Shown here piece after piece: positions 517-19,750 of a stretch of 20,425 nt of DNA. This DNA is from a virus, in the IMG/VR virus record IMGVR_UViG_3300006922_000250, positions 1 through 20,425 of that record. One strand, written 5' to 3'. Position 1 is the stretch's first letter. Every line of letters starts with the position of its first letter. The notes beneath the pieces are model-generated. The model saw only the letters and a list, made by a program, of their open reading frames with translations, had not been told where the DNA came from and did no database searches. The translations under genes and the position numbers were made by a program.

Positions 517-741
517 ATGGACATAAGAAAAATTTCAATTGGAGCAGACTATAAGTCTGGTGCTATGCATTACATAGTAGGCCAGGATGTTTTAGGCGGC
601 AGTTATGGAATACATCTTATACAGCATGATGTTTCAGCAGATTCATATAAGATATGGATTATGAAAAAAGATGAAGTTTTACTTTGGAAGGAATTCAAAT
701 GCACTCTACCTATATCTTTAGAATATAATATAAACTTTTAA
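517..741 (+). CDS. Small conserved-looking phage protein, function unknown
   Basis: A 74-residue, probably soluble beta-rich protein. It shows MDIRKISIGADYK, MHYIVGQDVLGGSYGIHLI and a C-terminal PISLEYNINF. It has no signal peptide, membrane segment or catalytic motif. From memory, short proteins with this 'IRKISIG.DYK..MHYIVGQ' layout recur in marine phage genomes without assigned function. Its stop codon TAA (739-741) overlaps the ATG of the next gene by one base, so translation of the GroES-like gene is probably coupled to it. Confidence 0.72.
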   Translation: MDIRKISIGADYKSGAMHYIVGQDVLGGSYGIHLIQHDVSADSYKIWIMKKDEVLLWKEFKCTLPISLEYNINF

Positions 742-1310
742 TGAAATCACCTTACTCATTTATTGTTAAACCTTATAACAATAGAAGGTATGACAACATC
801 AAAAACTACGGTGATGTAGAGTTTATCACAAGTACTTCGGAAGAAGATCACAAAGCCTCTAATCGCTTTGCTACTGTAGTCTCTACTCCTATAAATTATA
901 AAGGTCCTATAAAAGAGGGCGATATACTTTTAGTGCATCATAACGTGTTTAAATTTTATAATGACATGTATGGTCGCAGAAAAAGTGGTAAAAGTTTTTT
1001 CAAAGACAATTTGTTTTTTGTAGACCCAGATCAGTTTTATCTTTATAAAAGTAAAGAAGAATCTAATTGGATGGGCTATAGCAAATATTGTTTTATAAAA
1101 CCATTGAAAGCAAAAAAATCTTATCTTGATAAAAATTCTAAAAATGAACCATTAAGAGGTATTGTAAAATACATTAACAATGAGTTAATTGAAAAGGGAG
1201 TTAAAGTAGGTGATGAGGTTTTATATGAACCTGACTCTGAATACGAGTTTGTAGTAGATGATGAAAAATTATATAGGATGTTTACAAGAAATATAACAGT
1301 GGTGTTATGA
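741..1310 (+). CDS. Putative phage co-chaperonin with two GroES-like halves
   Basis: This 189-residue protein has the layout of GroES/Cpn10 twice. The first half (about 1-105) has a basic N-terminal strand ending in VKP, a loop with G24-D-V-E-F-I-T30 where GroES has its mobile-loop GGIVL, and then a strand before IKEGDILLVHH (G60-D61). The second half (about 108-189) repeats FIKP, a GIVKYI strand and VKVGDEVLYEPD (G157-D158). It closes with LYRMFTRNITVVL, matching the GroES ending pattern 'G.-vL-m-e-dIl-av'. Co-chaperonins cap GroEL in the cytosol; T4 gp31 does this for the T4 capsid protein, and chloroplast Cpn20 is a known tandem form. The second half lacks an obvious mobile loop. The gene overlaps its neighbours by 1 nt upstream and 4 nt downstream (ATGA), implying coupled translation. 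The assignment is from motif reading only. Confidence 0.6.
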   Translation: MKSPYSFIVKPYNNRRYDNIKNYGDVEFITSTSEEDHKASNRFATVVSTPINYKGPIKEGDILLVHHNVFKFYNDMYGRRKSGKSFFKDNLFFVDPDQFYLYKSKEESNWMGYSKYCFIKPLKAKKSYLDKNSKNEPLRGIVKYINNELIEKGVKVGDEVLYEPDSEYEFVVDDEKLYRMFTRNITVVL

Positions 1311-1780
1311 TAAAATTTTATCAAAACGTAATTTCTAAACCTGATTTTTATGTAGAAGAAATATTAAAAAAAGGTTTTTATGATTTACCAGATGGAGAAA
1401 ATTTATTTAAAAATGTTTGTCAAAAACATGAAGATGAATTTTATGAATTTCTTTTAAATAACGTACCTAATTATAAAGTTGTTTTAAATTTTGTTCGTCA
1501 ATCACCATTAGGTCAAAAAGAACCTAACTACATTCATACAGATGATATGATGGGTGATTTAACTGCTGTTTTGTATTTAAATAAAAAACATCCTGATGGA
1601 TATGGAACAACATTATATGATGATGATGATAATAAGATATTAGTATCCAAAGCGAAATATAATTCTGTTTTTATATTTCCTTCAAGTGTTAAGCATTCGA
1701 GAAATACATTAGATAACTTTGGTAAAAAAAACGAATCAAGATTGGTTCAAGTAGCGTTTTTAAATAAAAAAAATGAATGA
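1307..1780 (+). CDS. 2-oxoglutarate/Fe(II)-dependent oxygenase (prolyl-hydroxylase-like)
   Basis: A 157-residue single-domain protein with the facial triad of 2OG-Fe(II) dioxygenases. The HxD pair is H77-T-D79 (in YIHTDD), and the distal His is H130 (in FPSSVKHSRN). R145 (in SRLVQVAF) is placed to bind the 2-oxoglutarate carboxylate. The strands between (LTAVLYLNKK, GGT-like GYGTTLY, NSVFIFPS) match the double-stranded beta-helix of the prolyl 4-hydroxylase-like family. Such enzymes couple O2 and 2-oxoglutarate to hydroxylation of a protein or small-molecule substrate and are frequent in marine phages; the substrate here is unknown. The gene is very AT-rich (12 G/C in 60 at 1321-1380). It starts inside the stop of the GroES-like gene (ATGA) and ends overlapping the SET gene by 8 nt. 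Confidence 0.88.
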   Translation: MIKFYQNVISKPDFYVEEILKKGFYDLPDGENLFKNVCQKHEDEFYEFLLNNVPNYKVVLNFVRQSPLGQKEPNYIHTDDMMGDLTAVLYLNKKHPDGYGTTLYDDDDNKILVSKAKYNSVFIFPSSVKHSRNTLDNFGKKNESRLVQVAFLNKKNE

Positions 1781-2165
1781 TTTTAAGGAAATGCTAAATG
1801 AATTAAATATTAACCTTGAAGAGTTAAATATTTATATAGAGTCAGATAAATTTAAAAAAGAAGCTGGACCTGTTGTTGATGATAACAATAAAAATTATAA
1901 AGTGTTACCTTCAAAAATAGAAGGAAAAGGAATATTTGCTTGTAAAGATTTTAATAAAGGAGATTTTATAGGCTATGGTAAGTTAAATAATACACGAACT
2001 TTAGCAGGGAGATATACAAATCACTCTAATTTAAACAATGCTAAATTTTATTATATTAAAAAAAACAGTAATTTAGTTTTAATAGCTGAAAAAGATATTA
2101 TTTCTGAAGATGAAATATTAGTTAATTACAGACATCACACCTATAATAAAGAATATTATGAGTAG
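1773..2165 (+). CDS. Minimal SET-domain protein, putative protein lysine methyltransferase
   Basis: A 130-residue protein. Residues 1-40 are a helical, acidic leader. Residues about 42-120 follow the SET order: G51-K-G-I-F-A56 (the SAM-binding N-terminal 'G.GvfA' motif), a KGDFIGYG strand, R80-Y-T-N-H-S85 (the 'R.iNHS' pseudoknot motif), then LIAEKDIISEDEILVNY with Y119 where SET enzymes have their conserved C-terminal tyrosine. SET proteins transfer methyl from S-adenosylmethionine to lysine side chains. The variable SET-I segment between the first strands and RYTNHS is nearly absent (about 13 residues). The Cys usually following NHS is Asn, and no post-SET zinc Cys cluster is present, so activity is uncertain. 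The gene is very AT-rich (8 G/C in 60 at 2041-2100). It overlaps the oxygenase gene and the next small gene by 8 nt each. Confidence 0.82.
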   Translation: MNDFKEMLNELNINLEELNIYIESDKFKKEAGPVVDDNNKNYKVLPSKIEGKGIFACKDFNKGDFIGYGKLNNTRTLAGRYTNHSNLNNAKFYYIKKNSNLVLIAEKDIISEDEILVNYRHHTYNKEYYE

Positions 2166-12852: not shown

Positions 12853-15800
12853 ATGCCAATAGTTACAACAAATTTTATTGCAGGTAGAATGAATAAATCT
12901 GTGGATGAAAGACTTCTTCCACCAGGTGAATACATTGACGCTATGAATGTTCGTTTAGGATCTACTGAATCTACTGAAATAGGAGCTGTAGAGAACTCAA
13001 AAGGAAACGAGCAACTAACTACAATACAATACAATGGAGTTCCTCTAAGCTCTTCTGCTGTCTGTATAGGAGCATATGAAGATGGTGTTAGAGAAAATAT
13101 TTATTGGTTTATTCATGATGGTTCAAACACTCAAAGCCCTAAAGGGGTAGTTGATTTAGTAGTTTCTTATAACACTACAAATGAGATAGTTAATTACCAC
13201 GTTGTAACAGTAGATTTATTAAATTTTGATCCTAAGTTTTTAATTACAGGTGTTGATTTAATCGAAGATCTTTTGTTTTGGACAGATGATAAAAATCCTC
13301 CAAGAACAATAAATATAAACAGAAGTTATGCAGAGCCTATTTCAAACGTAGATCAAATTGTAGAAGAAGATATATCTGTAATTGTAAAACCACCTGGTTT
13401 TGAAAGCGCTGTAGGGACACATGTTCCACTACCAGCACCAACAATAAATTTTTTAAATATTTCAGGAAACCAAAACTATATTGAAAACAGATTTTTATGT
13501 TTTGCTTACAGATATAGATATGACGATGGTCAATACAGTGCAACATCTTTATTTACAAACCCAGCATTTGTACCTAAACCTTTTGCTTTTAGTACAAAAA
13601 ACTATTGTAATGATGGAATGCTAAATCTTTACAATGGTGTAGAGATTAAATTTTCTACAGGAAGTTCAAGAGTAAAAGAAGTAGATTTATTATTTAAAGA
13701 TACAAACTCTACTACTTTAAATGTAATTGAAAGATTTAAAAAAGAAGATTATGGCTGGGCAAATAACACAAATAAAACCTATACATTTACTAACAACAAA
13801 ATATATACAGTATTAGGTAATGATGAATTACTAAGACAATATGACAATGTTCCAAGGTTAGCAAAAGCTCAAACCATACAAGGAAACAGATTGATGTATG
13901 GTAATTATGTAGATGGATACAATATAACAAGACCAGATGCGGATGGAAATAACATTGCTATTGATTATAATACAAGTTTAGTTAATACACTTTTAGGTTT
14001 TTCTGAATTACCTTTTGGTTTACTAAATAATGGTGAAACATATACAATAGATCCTAATCCAGGACAGAGCGAAAACATAGAGAACTCTAAGGTTACAATA
14101 GACTTAACAGCAATAGCTGATAAATTAAATGCTAATGCTTTGATAGGATTGACATTTGATTTTCATAGTGACAAAAGAGTTTTCTTTCCGTCTAACACTA
14201 CTGCGGCTACAGAAAATGTTGATTTTGAAAACCAACCATTTACTCTTAATGTAAATATAACTTTAGATCAAGACTATGCAACTCCATATGATTTCTTTAA
14301 CAGTCCTTTGTTTGCAGAACGTATTGGAACTATTCTTAATACAAACTTTCAACCTCTTGCTACAGCAGATCAAGGAAACTCATTAACAGATTTTTTTAAT
14401 AATGAACTTTCTTCTCCAGCTATAGGAACATATCCTTTTGTTAAACATAATAGTAGTATTACAGACGCGACTAATCAGCAAGGTTTTACACTTTCTAATT
14501 TTGCTCCAGGATCAAATACGTGTGACATTCAAGTAATTGCTATGGCTTTTCAGAGTACGGATTTAACTAATCCCTCTTCTCCAGTAGTAACCACACTATA
14601 TGAATACTTTAGGTTTGTTAGCGTTCAAGGATCATTTAACACAGATTTAGATACAGGTAGTTTACATAGTGATCGTGACTTTGAAACAGGTATTGTTTAT
14701 AGTGACGAGTATGGAAGATCATCTACAGTTTTAGTTTCTGAATACAACACTGTTTATGTAGAGCCTGGTAATAGTGTTACAGCAAATAGTATACAAGTTG
14801 CTATATCTTCAAGGGCGCCTTATTGGGCAGAAAGATATAAGTTTGTTGTAAAGCCAAGTAAGGGAGGTTATGAAACTATTTTTTCTAACTTTTATTATGT
14901 TAGGCCAAGTGATAACATGGTGTTTTTTAGGCTTGAAGGTGACAACGCAAACAAAGTTCAAAAAGGACAAACTCTTGTGGTTAAAGCTGACGTTAGTGGA
15001 CCTCTTACAAGAGTAGAAAAATGTGAGATTTTAGAAATAAGTGCAGAGCCATCTAATTTTTTAAATGACGTAAATGAATATGGTGAAGACTCTTTTCAAC
15101 TTAAAGGTCTTTACATGTTAATCAAAAATCAAAATTTTGATATTGTTATTCCAGAGGATTCTATTATTGAGTATGGAATGATTAAAAAAAGAAGTGCTTC
15201 AAGAGGATGTACAGACGCCAGAAAAATTGGGTATAAATGTTTTACTACAGATTCTGACACAGGTGTTACTACAAACTACGAGGTTCCAGGAGGTTCAGTT
15301 ATTAGAATAGAAGTAAGAATGTTTCGTAATGATACATTTAATGGAAATAGCTGTGAAGAAAGAGAGTGGAAATGGGAGCAAGAATATGTTGCAAGTAGAG
15401 ATTATGTTGATATGAGAAGATGGTGGATTGGAGATAATGTAAACCCATCTCTTGGTCTACCTGGAAATATCTCGCAAGAAACAGATATAATAAATGATAC
15501 TACTTTAGCAACGCCTAATGGAACTGGTAATGATGTTGCAAATAATATGGCGTGTACAGTTTGGGCTGTAACATTTCAATGGATACAAGATAGTAGTCAA
15601 GGTGTTAATGACCCTTTATATTTAGGCGTTTCATCTGGAGTTAAAGGATGTAATAGACCTTGGCCTCAAAGCGACAGAACTTCTGATTTAGAAGTTGAGC
15701 TTATAGTTTTTAGAGCAAACACATTAATGGTTTTTGAAACAGAACCAAACGATGCGAATGCTGAATTATATTATGATGCATCTCAATCTTTTCCTATATC

Positions 15801-17643
15801 TCAGCCTGATGGATTTCATATGTCTGGAGTTAATTCAGATTTAGGAGACCAAAATCAAACTGCTTCACAAGATGCTGTAATAAATTTAAATTTTATAGAT
15901 TGTTATACTTTTGGAAATGGTGTTGAAAGTTTTAAAATAAAAGATCAGTTAGCTGGAAGACCTTTTCAATTAGGTCAAAGAACATTAGCTGTATCTAATC
16001 AAGATTTTAAAGAAGCTGATAGATTTGAAGGTATAACATACAGTGGAGTCTATAGTAGCAATAGTGGTGTTAATAACTTAAATGAATTTAATTTAGGTTT
16101 AGTAAACTTTAAAGATTGTGAAACATCTTTCGGTCCTATACAAAAAATGCATCCAAGAGAAACTGACATATTAGTTTTACAAGAAGATAGAATTACTTAT
16201 GTTTTATCAAGTAAAAACTTAATAAGCGACAGTACAGGTGGAGGTGTTATTGCATCTATTCCTCAGATATTAGGAACTCAAATTGCACGTATTGAAGAAT
16301 TTGGTATTAGTTATAATCCAGAAAGTTTTGTCTCTCATGGTTATGATATGTTTTTTACTGATGTAAAAAGAAGTGCTGTGTTAAAATTAAGAGGTACAAG
16401 CAGGAACAATGATTCTTTAGAAGTAATTTCTGATATGGGAATGAGGTCGTGGTTTAGAGATGAATTTCATAACTCAATACAAACTCAAAAATTAGGAGGA
16501 TATGATCCTTATATGGATGAATATGTTTTAGGAATGAATTGTAAAGAAGTTCCTTTACCACCAGAAATCTATCAATGTGGATATAAACTACAAAGAAATA
16601 ATTTAGCTGTTGGGTCGTCTAATGCAATTGTTAGCGATATAAATTATGGTTCATTAATTGGTACAGCAGGATTTAGTTATAACGTTACTTCTGGTTCAAT
16701 AATTATTTCTGTACTATGGAATGGAACAACAACAACAAGCTCAACGCTAACAGGTAATGGAACATTTACATTTGATAAAACTTTAAACAGCCCTGCTATT
16801 GCAGAAGTAACAATTACAGCTGTATCAACAGCATCGTTTGTTGTAACAGCTAACTGTGTTGAATCAGAGTCTATAACGGTTGTAAAAGTAGTTATGAACT
16901 CTCCAAATGAAAGTGGAGAATTTATTCATGCTGAATACTTTTGGGAGGATAGTGTAAATATTAGTCCAGTAGATTCAGATTTAGCAGAGTTTGGTAATAA
17001 TAATTTAACAGCATCTTACTATGACGCACAAGTTGGAGTAAGATCATTAGGAGTTTTTCCATACGATGGTGTTGATTTAACAATCAGATCTAATAAGATT
17101 AATTTTGATACATATGACTGGAATTATCCTAACGATAATTTTAAATATTTATCAAGCAATACCTTATACTCTAATAATCAGGCTGATATAGCGTCGTTGT
17201 TAGCAGCTGCAACTACAGTGCCAGACAGTTCGGTAACTAATCCATCTGCAGGCCTGTATCAAACAACTATTAGTAGTTTATCATTGCCTACTGCAAATCA
17301 ATATTTGTATTTAATATATGATTACAGATTAGTTAGCTGTCAAGAGTTTTGTTATGACGCAAGTTCAGCTGCAGCAGCATGCTGTGAATGTGCATTTACA
17401 TACACCGCTTATCCAAGTAGTACTGTGTTTACCGTTGAAGCAAATGTTTGTAACCAACCATTAAATAATACATACTATCATTCAGGAAGTGGAACTTTGC
17501 CAGCATATGGAGATTTTGTATATTATGCATCAGATGGTGCAGTTGGTAGTAATTTAGGAGTAGGACTCTATAAGGTGAGCGCAACAGATTATATAACAGT
17601 AAATCAATTTGGCTTAGTTACTGCGGTAACTACATGCCCATAA
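12853..17643 (+). CDS. Giant tail nozzle / stabilisation-type protein
   Basis: This 1596-residue protein is the largest gene here. The N-terminus (NFIAGRMNKSVDERLLPPGEY, DAMNVRLG, then IGAVENSKGNEQ) fits the start of tail nozzle or DNA-stabilisation proteins (T7 gp12, P22 gp10 class), which form the distal tube of short tails. About residues 208-235 carry FLCFAYRYRYDDGQYSATS. Residues about 610-690 have IVYSDEYGRSSTV and APYWAERYKFVVK, resembling fibronectin-type segments in phage tail proteins. Residues about 1196-1228 (MRSWFRDEFHNSI, GGYDPYMDEYVLGMN) look like a propeller closure. Beyond about 1240 come extra modules, ending in a Cys-rich stretch (CQEFCYD, ACCECAF) and a beta module of roughly 85 residues closed by the terminal CP. 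It is much longer than T7 gp12 (about 790 residues), so fused receptor- or fibre-binding domains are likely. Confidence 0.75.
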   Translation: MPIVTTNFIAGRMNKSVDERLLPPGEYIDAMNVRLGSTESTEIGAVENSKGNEQLTTIQYNGVPLSSSAVCIGAYEDGVRENIYWFIHDGSNTQSPKGVVDLVVSYNTTNEIVNYHVVTVDLLNFDPKFLITGVDLIEDLLFWTDDKNPPRTININRSYAEPISNVDQIVEEDISVIVKPPGFESAVGTHVPLPAPTINFLNISGNQNYIENRFLCFAYRYRYDDGQYSATSLFTNPAFVPKPFAFSTKNYCNDGMLNLYNGVEIKFSTGSSRVKEVDLLFKDTNSTTLNVIERFKKEDYGWANNTNKTYTFTNNKIYTVLGNDELLRQYDNVPRLAKAQTIQGNRLMYGNYVDGYNITRPDADGNNIAIDYNTSLVNTLLGFSELPFGLLNNGETYTIDPNPGQSENIENSKVTIDLTAIADKLNANALIGLTFDFHSDKRVFFPSNTTAATENVDFENQPFTLNVNITLDQDYATPYDFFNSPLFAERIGTILNTNFQPLATADQGNSLTDFFNNELSSPAIGTYPFVKHNSSITDATNQQGFTLSNFAPGSNTCDIQVIAMAFQSTDLTNPSSPVVTTLYEYFRFVSVQGSFNTDLDTGSLHSDRDFETGIVYSDEYGRSSTVLVSEYNTVYVEPGNSVTANSIQVAISSRAPYWAERYKFVVKPSKGGYETIFSNFYYVRPSDNMVFFRLEGDNANKVQKGQTLVVKADVSGPLTRVEKCEILEISAEPSNFLNDVNEYGEDSFQLKGLYMLIKNQNFDIVIPEDSIIEYGMIKKRSASRGCTDARKIGYKCFTTDSDTGVTTNYEVPGGSVIRIEVRMFRNDTFNGNSCEEREWKWEQEYVASRDYVDMRRWWIGDNVNPSLGLPGNISQETDIINDTTLATPNGTGNDVANNMACTVWAVTFQWIQDSSQGVNDPLYLGVSSGVKGCNRPWPQSDRTSDLEVELIVFRANTLMVFETEPNDANAELYYDASQSFPISQPDGFHMSGVNSDLGDQNQTASQDAVINLNFIDCYTFGNGVESFKIKDQLAGRPFQLGQRTLAVSNQDFKEADRFEGITYSGVYSSNSGVNNLNEFNLGLVNFKDCETSFGPIQKMHPRETDILVLQEDRITYVLSSKNLISDSTGGGVIASIPQILGTQIARIEEFGISYNPESFVSHGYDMFFTDVKRSAVLKLRGTSRNNDSLEVISDMGMRSWFRDEFHNSIQTQKLGGYDPYMDEYVLGMNCKEVPLPPEIYQCGYKLQRNNLAVGSSNAIVSDINYGSLIGTAGFSYNVTSGSIIISVLWNGTTTTSSTLTGNGTFTFDKTLNSPAIAEVTITAVSTASFVVTANCVESESITVVKVVMNSPNESGEFIHAEYFWEDSVNISPVDSDLAEFGNNNLTASYYDAQVGVRSLGVFPYDGVDLTIRSNKINFDTYDWNYPNDNFKYLSSNTLYSNNQADIASLLAAATTVPDSSVTNPSAGLYQTTISSLSLPTANQYLYLIYDYRLVSCQEFCYDASSAAAACCECAFTYTAYPSSTVFTVEANVCNQPLNNTYYHSGSGTLPAYGDFVYYASDGAVGSNLGVGLYKVSATDYITVNQFGLVTAVTTCP

Positions 17644-17655
17644 ATAAAATAATAA

Positions 17656-18918
17656 ATGGCAGCATTAGGAACATATTGTTTTGATGGATTAAATTTTTCG
17701 CAAGCTACGGCTTTGTATACAGATTCAACATTAACAACCCTATCTCCTGACGGATGGTATTCTCAGGGAAATATTATAAGACAACAATTAAATGGTGTGC
17801 TGTTAAATGCACAACCTTGTGGAGAATGCTTAGTTCCTTGTGGATCAGGTATCAATGCTTCTTTTAGTAGCAATGGATTCTTTAGTGCAGATGTTGACTT
17901 AGCAAGTGATACTGGAGCAGTAGTTTTATATTTTTATATGGGTTCTTCTATACCTGATGGTGTTTTAGCTACATATAACTCTAATACATACAACAGACTT
18001 ACTTGTCACGGAAACCACAATACTGATACTATCGTTGATGGAGCTAATAATCAAGTTGATTATGCAGGTGTATTTAATCAAGGCACTGGAAGAATTACTT
18101 ATGTTGGAAATAGTAATCCATCACTATTAAGTGATTCACCTTATAATAATATACCATCTGGCTCTTGTACATCAGGTGATACCCCTCAGAATTATACATA
18201 TACTGGATCCGCGTATGTTGCACAAGGTACTTTTGAAACAGTAACTGTAGCTTCAAACGAAATTGGAGTTAATCCAGGAACAGCAAGTAAAGTTTTTACA
18301 ATGGTTGTTCCTAAAACTTCAGCGGCAGTAACTTCAATAAACCTTTTAATTGCTGCGCCTATGTGTGGTACATTTTTTAAATGGGAGGTAGATTGTCCAG
18401 TGGCTTTACCAAGTTTTTATGGGTCAGCGTCTCAAAGCACAACAGCTTGTGCAACATCGACAACAACATACTATTTTGCAAGAAACGCCGTAGGAACATC
18501 TAATGTGTTTACGGTAGACACAAATATAATTCCAAACGTGGGTAACTGGGTTTTTACAGATTCAGACGGATCTACATATTTAAATGACACGTCTCTTTTA
18601 CTTTATTACATAGTAGGTGGAACGACTGCAATAGGTGTACGAAATGGAGTTGTTGTGTCATCAGCGCCTTGTTCAGGAGGTTCTACTGGGTCTAATATAG
18701 TTATTGAAGGTTGTGAAACAGGAAATATAGAAAATGCAGTAAACACATACAACAACGTTCTTGGAGACGTTATAGAAATTCAAACTGGTACTCCAGGAGC
18801 AGGAGCGGTGTATTGTGGTACTGTGATTTCAGTAAATCAACCAGGACCTGCAACCTCAACTGTTTTAAATGGACAGGCAAGACCAGGATGTAACGATACA
18901 ATACATTGTTTCCAATAA
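17656..18918 (+). CDS. Tail fibre/appendage-like protein with Cys-bounded beta modules
   Basis: A 420-residue, Ser/Thr/Gly/Asn-rich, low-charge protein directly downstream of the nozzle. Residues about 8-55 (ALYTDSTLTTLSPDGWYS ... NGVLLNAQPC) and 265-339 (WVFTDSDGSTYLND ... NGVVVSSAPC) are copies of one module that also ends the nozzle protein. The centre (about 68-255) has TGAVVLYFYMGSSIPDGVLA and a YNSNTYNRL segment, a pattern of beta-sandwich tail proteins that may bind a surface sugar. The C-terminus has VYCGTVISVNQPGP and several Cys (PGCNDTIHCFQ). There is no signal peptide. It is probably an exposed tail component involved in host binding. The start codon lies 12 nt after the nozzle stop. 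The specific receptor cannot be read from sequence. Confidence 0.65.
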   Translation: MAALGTYCFDGLNFSQATALYTDSTLTTLSPDGWYSQGNIIRQQLNGVLLNAQPCGECLVPCGSGINASFSSNGFFSADVDLASDTGAVVLYFYMGSSIPDGVLATYNSNTYNRLTCHGNHNTDTIVDGANNQVDYAGVFNQGTGRITYVGNSNPSLLSDSPYNNIPSGSCTSGDTPQNYTYTGSAYVAQGTFETVTVASNEIGVNPGTASKVFTMVVPKTSAAVTSINLLIAAPMCGTFFKWEVDCPVALPSFYGSASQSTTACATSTTTYYFARNAVGTSNVFTVDTNIIPNVGNWVFTDSDGSTYLNDTSLLLYYIVGGTTAIGVRNGVVVSSAPCSGGSTGSNIVIEGCETGNIENAVNTYNNVLGDVIEIQTGTPGAGAVYCGTVISVNQPGPATSTVLNGQARPGCNDTIHCFQ

Positions 18919-18934
18919 TAAAAATATATATTAT

Positions 18935-19750
18935 ATGAGTTTAAATTGCGAGTCATACACATTATCATACAGCGAAACATCTAAAGGATGGCCGTCGTTT
19001 TATTCATTTAACCCTGACTTTATGATAGGGATGAATAGTTACTTTTATAGTTTTAAAGGTGGTAACATATGGAGACATAACACTGGAGTTAATCGTAATA
19101 CTTATTATGGTCAATTTAGAAATGCCTCTATAAGAAGTGTTTTTAATCCTGAGCCAACACTAAGTATAAAATTATTTAAAACATTGTCATATGAAGCCAC
19201 TACAACTGTGGATGATACTAATCAAGCAAGATGGGAATGTACATCGTTGTTTACTGATTTGACAGATGGCAACCCAGGATCTATGTTAGATACTTATTTT
19301 GAAGAGAAAGAAGGGGAGTGGTTTAGTTATCTTAGAACAAATTCTGGAACAGTAAACTGGAAGCAAAGATCAGCTAATGGTGTTGGTGTATGTACTAATG
19401 TAAGCGGACCAAGCACCGCTGTTATAGTTACATTTTCAACTCCTATTGGAACAATTTTAAATATTGGAGATAATGTTTATGCTGCTACTCTGACAGCTGG
19501 AGTTGCAACAACACAGCCTATTTTAGCAGGAGTAGTTACTGGTAAAACTTCTACAACCATAACAATAGATAGTTCGTCAGCATCTGCTACAATACCAACG
19601 ATTGGACAGTTTATAATGTTTATAAAAAATGCTGTAGCAGAGTCTCATGGAGCAAGAGGATATTATTTAGAGTTTGAGCTTGAGAATGACTCAACAAACC
19701 CTGTAGAACTGTTTTCTGTAGGTAGTAGCGTCATGAAAAGTTATCCATAG
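18935..19750 (+). CDS. Tail structural protein with KGWPSFYSF motif and inserted beta domain
   Basis: A 271-residue protein. The start is placed at ATG 18935 (MSLNCESYTLSYSETSKGWP), 16 nt after the previous stop. An in-frame ATG at 18869 would overlap the preceding gene by 50 nt and add an unrelated-looking 22 residues. The N-terminal region carries KGWPSFYSF, MIGMNSYFYSFKGG, IWRHN and YYGQF, a motif series found in large structural proteins of marine phages, where it usually forms part of a longer chain. Residues about 150-230 (GDNVYAATLTAGVATTQPIL; GKTSTTITIDSSSASATIP) resemble an inserted beta domain like that in the 325-residue connector. The end (GYYLEFELENDST; VELFSVGSSVMKSYP) is beta-rich. 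Likely a virion tail protein; precise role unknown. Confidence 0.68.
   Translation: MSLNCESYTLSYSETSKGWPSFYSFNPDFMIGMNSYFYSFKGGNIWRHNTGVNRNTYYGQFRNASIRSVFNPEPTLSIKLFKTLSYEATTTVDDTNQARWECTSLFTDLTDGNPGSMLDTYFEEKEGEWFSYLRTNSGTVNWKQRSANGVGVCTNVSGPSTAVIVTFSTPIGTILNIGDNVYAATLTAGVATTQPILAGVVTGKTSTTITIDSSSASATIPTIGQFIMFIKNAVAESHGARGYYLEFELENDSTNPVELFSVGSSVMKSYP

What the first reader, a model, noticed from the sequence alone, without database searches (positions are those of the whole stretch)
17370..18680. Cys-closed beta module repeated across two adjacent tail genes
The nozzle C-terminus (last about 85 residues), and residues 8-55 and 265-339 of the 420-residue protein, share the pattern of a (V/L)(Y/F) strand followed by a short D/S-rich turn, a (L/W)Y(K/S/Y) strand, then G(V/L)(V/L)-x(2-4)-C at the end. 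One module type placed at the end of one protein and twice in the next suggests duplication and shuffling of a receptor- or disulphide-linked unit between neighbouring tail genes.
Basis: partly seen in the sequence, partly recalled or inferred. Interest (0 to 1): 0.5.

Follow-up and report, generated by a model that had tools for sequence, protein, structure and literature searches.

The report
Modular insert in split phage tail-tip
In this crAss-like phage the tail-tip "muzzle" gene is cut in two inside a conserved region, and the gap is filled with small swappable, cysteine-framed protein modules that may be the phage's contact surface with its host.

Summary
The nozzle C-terminus and residues 265-339 of the 420-aa protein are copies of one ~78-aa module (type B) with a conserved Cys at both ends. 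A profile built only from nozzle tails of other phages finds the second copy (E 6.7e-5), with 0 of 1092 decoys at E<=0.01. Residues 8-55 are a related shorter type (A); that link is weaker. The setting matters more. The "nozzle" is the first part of a crAss-like muzzle; the ORF after the 420-aa gene carries its C-terminal domain. Fused muzzles have a turn of a few to ~15 residues at this point. Here ~370 residues plus a whole gene are inserted and the muzzle is two chains. All 80 loci kept from a type-A scan hold a muzzle-chain match. Nozzle and middle-gene copies form separate subfamilies, so the duplication between the two genes looks old. Whole modules do move: between phages, and by in-frame gain or loss in a second tail locus of close relatives. 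No Pfam or NCBIfam model matched more than one of 32 middle proteins. Most likely the array is an exchangeable adhesin-like decoration. Receptor binding and disulphides are inferred.

The parts
12853..17643 (+).
   Evidence: phrog_14478 E 6e-232; homologues in phages of Flavobacterium, Cellulophaga, Tenacibaculum and Maribacter
16492..16533 (+). LGGYDPYMDEYVLG: last conserved motif before the insertion point (residues 1214-1227)
   Evidence: position; in fused muzzles the next conserved stretch follows after a short turn
16561..16866 (+). Inserted beta-sandwich domain in the N-chain (residues ~1237-1338)
   Evidence: AlphaFold mean pLDDT 88.8; VIA Z 11.0, rmsd 2.2 over 95 residues to SIDT1; Z 10.2, rmsd 2.6 over 93 to ColG collagen-binding domain
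16870..17334 (+). Second inserted beta region of the N-chain (residues ~1340-1494)
   Evidence: AlphaFold model; present in the alignment of 29 tails
17350..17391 (+). Cys-rich hinge CQEFCYDASSAAAACCEC; in relatives different modules, or none, follow it
   Evidence: conserved Cys columns; low pLDDT; 5 of 47 representatives (L065, L071, L074, L078, L079) end at or just after the equivalent hinge
17407..17640 (+). Type-B module, nozzle copy (residues 1519-1596)
   Evidence: profile hit E 7.9e-23 (profile iterated from this copy)
17656..18918 (+). Middle gene, 420 aa, module string A-D-B-C
   Evidence: modules; AlphaFold mean pLDDT 80.9, residues 343-420 below 50 except one residue
17668..17829 (+). 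Type-A module (residues 5-58)
   Evidence: profile hit E 2.1e-30 (iterated profile); opens the middle gene in 75 of 75 loci fetched with the muzzle-C query that have one
17824..18441 (+). Type-D domain (residues 57-262), jelly-roll-like
   Evidence: profile; VIA Z 8.2 SIDT1 and 7.4 ColG collagen-binding domain, weak; Foldseek gave no match at E<=0.001
18448..18675 (+). Type-B module, middle-gene copy (residues 265-340)
   Evidence: nozzle-only profile E 6.7e-5 over residues 246-339
18691..18909 (+). Type-C module (residues 346-418), four conserved Cys
   Evidence: 9 aligned copies; no reliable model
18935..19750 (+). Muzzle C-chain, 271 aa; the ATG at 18869 listed by the ORF finder overlaps the middle gene and is probably not the start
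   Evidence: PF25729 crAss_MUZ_C E 2.9e-10; near-identical relatives L008, L009, L011 have only the 271-aa form, L007, L010, L039 also show the longer ORF; family profile maps to PhicrAss001 gp44 1200-1290, E 7e-15 for a one-sequence search

Best explanation
The window carries a crAss-like tail-tip muzzle encoded as two chains, with an exchangeable module array at the break. SHOWN by sequence: (1) the muzzle is cut at one short turn corresponding to PhicrAss001 gp44 residues ~1198-1200; (2) the first chain carries two extra beta regions, a Cys-rich hinge and, here, a type-B module; (3) a separate middle gene, opening with a type-A module in every locus counted, carries further Cys-framed modules (here A-D-B-C); (4) module content differs between phages by whole modules, some near-identical where the muzzle core is diverged, and type B is re-used in a second tail locus next to a fibre gene. 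INFERRED: the two muzzle chains refold together by completing a propeller blade; the middle protein docks on the muzzle, probably by its type-A module, and displays the array at the tail tip, where it binds host surface structures or shields the tip; each B module is locked by a disulphide between its two terminal Cys; making the array a separate gene lets it be swapped without disturbing the DNA gate.
For: Split: PF25729 in the downstream ORF; fused in Callevirus phi38:1 (1324 aa) and elemo (1470 aa), split in Baltivirus phi13:2 and MW202828; short turn in phi38:1 and gp44, ~15 residues longer in elemo; muzzle-C profile on gp44 1200-1290, E 7e-15, N-core weakly but colinearly on 1049-1148, E 0.0016; gp44 is solved as 7QOK. 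Separate genes: N-to-middle frame offsets 0/1/2 in 24/13/8 of 45 representatives, N stop TAA in 45 of 45, gaps 0-26 nt. Site association: of 80 loci kept (of 189 confirmed) from a type-A scan, 80 hold a muzzle-chain match, 78 an N-chain ORF of at least 1100 aa, and in 77 the first type-A ORF starts within 60 nt of the N-chain (74) or is fused to it (3); a C-chain follows within the fetched stretch in 55. Independently, 75 of 77 muzzle-C loci with both chains have a middle gene, all 75 beginning with A (near-duplicates not removed). Fusions of N-chain and middle gene: L188-L190, A at residue 1472-1474. Middle-gene dN/dS 0.09-0.27 in 7 comparisons. Exchange: L021/L023, N-core 74.7% nt, middle D and B 92.6% and 96.8%. 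Gain/loss: L289 has three B modules, L295 one; 535 nt in L289 face 7 nt in L295, flanks 86.6% and 92.7% identical. Proteins of this locus end with a Cys: 42 of 47 N-chains within the last 4 aa, 48 of 51 middle-region proteins within the last 6.
Against: No experiment shows the middle protein in a virion or binding anything. The D-domain fold matches are weak (Z <= 8.2; Foldseek none at E<=0.001), and such sandwiches are common. The N-core to gp44 match is weak (hmmsearch E 0.0016, hhalign probability 2%), and profiles of both chains found no PDB chain, so placing the cut in a propeller blade rests mainly on the C-chain match and on colinearity. 2 of 77 muzzle-C loci (L062, L063), phi13:2 and Panino have no middle gene, so it is not indispensable. 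dN/dS shows no positive selection, and 5 of the 12 excess-similarity rows are type-A modules, which may simply be more conserved.
Confidence: 0.62

Rival explanations
1. The modules are structural spacers or protective decoration of the tail tip, not receptor binders; their variability is neutral or reflects stability needs.
For: Two B copies can be gained or lost between close relatives; 5 of 47 representative N-chains end at the hinge with no module; dN/dS gives no sign of positive selection.
Against: Whole-module replacement at a tail-tip site and re-use of B beside an S74-type fibre gene fit a host-contact role better. Neither point is decisive.
Confidence: 0.25
2. The split is an assembly error, a stop-codon readthrough or an intron/intein product, and a single muzzle chain is made.
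For: In the window the middle gene is in the same frame as the N-chain; crAss-like phages are known for recoding, introns and inteins (PMC7886860, passages).
Against: Same split in many contigs and in two named records; all three frame offsets occur; between N-chain and middle gene stand the N stop and two further in-frame TAA; no Rfam match in the window at gathering thresholds; the intervening ORF is a constrained protein.
Confidence: 0.04
3. The middle protein is an assembly chaperone or scaffold that joins the two muzzle chains, and its variable modules are incidental.
For: Constant type-A opening module and constant gene position; conserved Cys.
Against: Some split muzzles have no middle gene (L062, L063, phi13:2); in the window type A is ~54 of 420 residues.
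Confidence: 0.12

Closest known systems
PhicrAss001 muzzle protein gp44 (PDB 7QOK; PMC10172136, section 9 read)
   Same: C-chain profile matches gp44 1200-1290; Pfam crAss_MUZ_C
   Different: gp44 is one chain with a tight turn where this phage has ~370 residues plus a gene; section 9 reports length variation by insertions into the crass and IG2 domain regions and does not mention an insertion here or a gene split
BACON-domain tandem repeats of crAssphage tail-associated proteins (PMC6949934, passages seen)
   Same: Small modules duplicated and transferred horizontally in crAss-like phages near tail genes
   Different: No BACON match at E<=1 in the 32 middle proteins or 29 tails scanned; modules here are Cys-framed and sit at the muzzle
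Bacterial collagen-binding / PPC domains and related jelly rolls (ColG 1NQJ)
   Same: Fold-level match for the N-chain inserted domain (Z 10.2) and weakly for D (Z 7.4)
   Different: Sequence identity 6-9%; no function implied; covers D and the N-chain domain, not the A or B modules. Foldseek's best rows for the tail model were streptococcal pilins (E 2.8e-4)

Membership tests
Crassvirales muzzle protein | C-terminal muzzle domain (PF25729) | tested here: met
   E 2.9e-10, 40.9 bits against cut-off 27
Crassvirales muzzle protein | Homology to PhicrAss001 gp44 on both sides of the split | tested here: inconclusive
   C-chain profile gp44 1200-1290 E 7e-15 (clear); N-core profile 1049-1148 E 0.0016 and hhalign probability 2% (weak, colinear)
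Crassvirales muzzle protein | Single polypeptide | tested here: not met
   Two ORFs separated by a third, in varying frames across relatives; hence described as a split variant
Crassvirales muzzle protein | IG1, IG2 and crass-fold domains | tested here: inconclusive
   N-chain matches phrog_14478 'virion structural protein', but its profile found no PDB chain and that part was not modelled
BACON domain repeat protein | BACON domain in Pfam scan | tested here: not met
   No BACON row at E<=1 for 32 middle proteins or 29 N-tails
Type-B module family defined here | Cys at both ends of a ~78-aa six-strand unit | tested here: met
   89 aligned copies: 100% and 98% Cys; strand order read from two models
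Diversity-generating retroelement target | Adjacent reverse transcriptase with template and variable repeats | not tested
   No DGR search was run
Receptor-binding protein | Binds a host surface ligand | not testable with these tools
   Inference from position and modularity only

The most novel reading that the evidence does not exclude
A virion gatekeeper protein has been permanently split inside a propeller blade, and the break serves as a dedicated docking and exchange site for a string of Cys-framed adhesin modules. The tail tip is then a two-chain gate plus a replaceable cassette, with the same module family also used in the fibre locus: a way of changing the host-contact surface by swapping whole modules rather than by point hypermutation.
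Probability: 0.42. Interest if true: 0.7.

Novelty: new variant of a known kind. Interest (0 to 1): 0.57.

Why it matters
crAss-like phages are the most abundant viruses of the human gut (abstract of PMC10172136) and have aquatic and Flavobacteriia-infecting relatives, yet how their tail tip recognises a host is open. This locus gives a concrete, testable candidate: a conserved gate with one insertion point and a naturally varied module set. Natural fusions, losses and swaps supply ready-made comparisons. The modules are not covered by Pfam or NCBIfam models in the scans made here and explain several short tail ORFs without annotation.

Tried and rejected
Single-sequence PDB searches of the three proteins gave nothing useful (one chance-level fibronectin row, E 0.11), and profile searches of both muzzle chains found no chain; the link to a solved muzzle came through gp44 itself. 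Fold searches were dominated by the D-type and N-chain sandwich domains; Foldseek gave 0 matches at E<=0.001 for the middle protein and 4 for the tail (best a streptococcal pilin). Stray single-member family matches: best Pfam Ig_VWA7 E 0.001 and best NCBIfam soxB E 0.0074, each in 1 of 32 middle proteins; FlgD_ig E 0.0053 in 1 of 29 tails. Readthrough, frameshift and intron explanations were considered and rejected. Recent N-to-middle shuffling was looked for and not found. Positive selection was looked for and not found; in 5 of 7 comparisons middle-gene dN/dS exceeds that of the N-core, and dS is near or above 0.8 in 4 of 7. In a genome scan for type A, 27 stretches matched the pattern and none was confirmed; type A hit 0 of 395 Bacteroidota genomes (positive control 3 of 3 phage records). 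Type B hit 0 of 3 genomes and 2 of 395: L287 in a 534-aa ORF with no Pfam hit, next to an ORF that looks like a tail-collar protein (recalled, not scanned), and L288 in a protein whose Ig/He_PIG matches lie just below the curated cut-offs. A tblastn of the three-B protein against named phages found nothing. Literature: full-text searches; in what I read of the results I saw no description of a split muzzle or of these modules; most listed papers were seen as listings only, and the library lacks most subscription journals. Papers: PMC10172136 passages and section 9; PMC10136315, PMC12386605, PMC6949934 and PMC7886860 passages only.
Full report
WHAT IS THERE. The window is a 20.4-kb virus record with terminase, portal and capsid genes of a crAss-like phage. 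By terminase the nearest named record is MW202828 (73.5% identity), then Flavobacterium elemo phages at 46.2%. Between them lies the 420-aa middle gene, for which no Pfam, PHROG or NCBIfam family was found. Among 32 aligned middle proteins, window included, two PHROGs without description recur (phrog_21885 in 8, phrog_13374 in 2); Pfam and NCBIfam rows each touch one member.

THE MODULE. Within the window the likeness is modest and one pair passes a shuffle test (2 of 500; the others 25 and 86 of 500). A profile from 28 nozzle tails of other phages, with no middle-gene sequence, settles it: 56 hits in 41 of 52 middle-region proteins, the window copy at E 6.7e-5, 0 of 1092 decoys and 0 of 268 other ORFs at E<=0.01. 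I call this type B. It is framed by a Cys at each end (100% and 98% of 89 copies), and the two copies in the window show the same six-strand order in the models (read from DSSP strings). Residues 8-55 are a shorter relative, type A, matching roughly the last two thirds of B. The evidence is above controls but weaker: hhalign score 23.5 against a control maximum of 17.9, probability 31%; 78 of 121 type-A segments against 2 of 1210 shuffles, the window's own just missing at E 0.016. Cys content is 3.3% in this protein and 2.7% in the inserted nozzle tail, 1.1% in the C-chain, and 0-0.9% in the seven other ORFs counted.

THE SITE. In phi38:1 the strand ending KEYVMHEK is followed after a residue or two by FTTAYS; in PhicrAss001 gp44 the same place is DVYFTYK-D-HCLCYSE, residues ~1198-1200; elemo has about 15 residues more. 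This lies in the part of gp44 after the IG2/crass region that ends at residue 1021 (PMC10172136 section 9); that it is a blade of the propeller is my inference. In the window ~370 residues follow LGGYDPYMDEYVLG before the first chain ends, then comes the middle gene, then the C-chain resumes with YTLSYSE. The better start of the C-chain is 18935 (271 aa), the only form in near-identical relatives L008, L009 and L011. The N stop and two further in-frame TAA precede the middle gene, and across 45 representatives all three frame offsets occur (24, 13, 8), so the genes are translated separately. phi13:2 and MW202828 carry separate N and C genes in public annotation.

HOW GENERAL. A scan with the C-chain confirmed 133 stretches and kept 78 loci. 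Of 77 holding both chains, 75 have a middle gene, and in all 75 it opens with type A; near-duplicates were not removed. A scan with type A alone kept 80 of 189 confirmed loci. All 80 hold a muzzle-chain match; in 74 the first type-A ORF starts within 60 nt of the N-chain, in 3 it is fused to it, and in 3 (L150, L166, L184) it lies 146-926 nt away. Middle genes range from A alone to A-D-B-C, A-D-B-D-B or three genes in a row made of A and B units. In L188-L190 the middle gene is fused to the N-chain. Such fusions support a joint function.

HOW IT CHANGES. Nozzle and middle B copies are separate subfamilies (45 of 45 and 99 of 107 best matches stay in class and in other loci; highest cross-class identity 55%), so the duplication between the neighbouring genes looks old. 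Movement is elsewhere. Among 943 locus pairs with any match, 12 module comparisons are at least 8 points more alike than the muzzle core, for example L021/L023: core 74.7%, D 92.6%, B 96.8%. Caveats: in 4 of the 12 rows the core alignment covered only 55-58% of the segment, and 5 of the 12 are type A, which may be under stronger constraint. A second tail locus upstream of the terminase, beside a fibre with an S74 chaperone domain, carries a small protein with one B module in a near-identical relative of the window and three in another close relative. The difference is a 535-nt block facing 7 nt, in frame, between flanks 86.6% and 92.7% identical. Middle-gene dN/dS is 0.09-0.27 in 7 comparisons, against 0.10-0.16 for the N-core: constrained, with no sign of positive selection.

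HOW IT MOST LIKELY WORKS. The muzzle gates the tail, and its distal crass domain is thought to contact the cell (PMC10172136, section 9). The array is encoded within the muzzle, is variable while the gate is not, contains sandwich domains resembling adhesive ones (best Z 11.0 for the N-chain domain, 8.2 for D; such values are not rare), and shares a module family with the fibre locus. The simplest reading is an exchangeable host-contact array hung on a split gate. Binding, disulphides, docking and blade completion between chains are not shown. Against it: some phages with a split muzzle lack the middle gene, fold matches are weak, and I saw no virion data for the middle protein.

BOTTOM LINE. 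The more interesting finding is the conserved split and its module array, which I did not see described in the searches listed under Tried and rejected.

Noticed in passing
L083, L084 (6106-7326): A gene between the middle gene and a longer muzzle C-chain (466 aa) encodes a GlcNAc-type glycosyltransferase (PF11397, E 1.3e-76 in L083).
   Followed up: partly
G004 (contig of L041), around 17000-32000 and 83600-85200: A 105-kb contig holds two different split-muzzle loci: a chimeric or joined assembly, or a real duplication.
   Followed up: no
L006 (Maribacter phage Panino), 4834-8747: Muzzle split at a different, earlier point (946 + 320 aa), the second part carrying the ends of crAss_MUZ and crAss_MUZ_C.
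   Followed up: no
window 1773-2165: A phage ORF with a SET domain (PF00856, E 2.2e-8), next to a 2OG-oxygenase-like ORF at 1307-1780 (below the cut-off).
   Followed up: no
window 741-1310: A 189-aa ORF with a weak co-chaperonin (Cpn10) match just under the cut-off.
   Followed up: no
L037, L137: Three middle genes in tandem built of A and B modules (AB | AAAB | ABBB in 7 loci and ABBBB | AAAB | ABBB in one).
   Followed up: partly
L285 4283-4750, L284 790-1254: 154-155-aa ORFs beside the S74 fibre share an MAVPTSGALS-type start and a Cys-ended tail; no Pfam hit for the L284 one.
   Followed up: no
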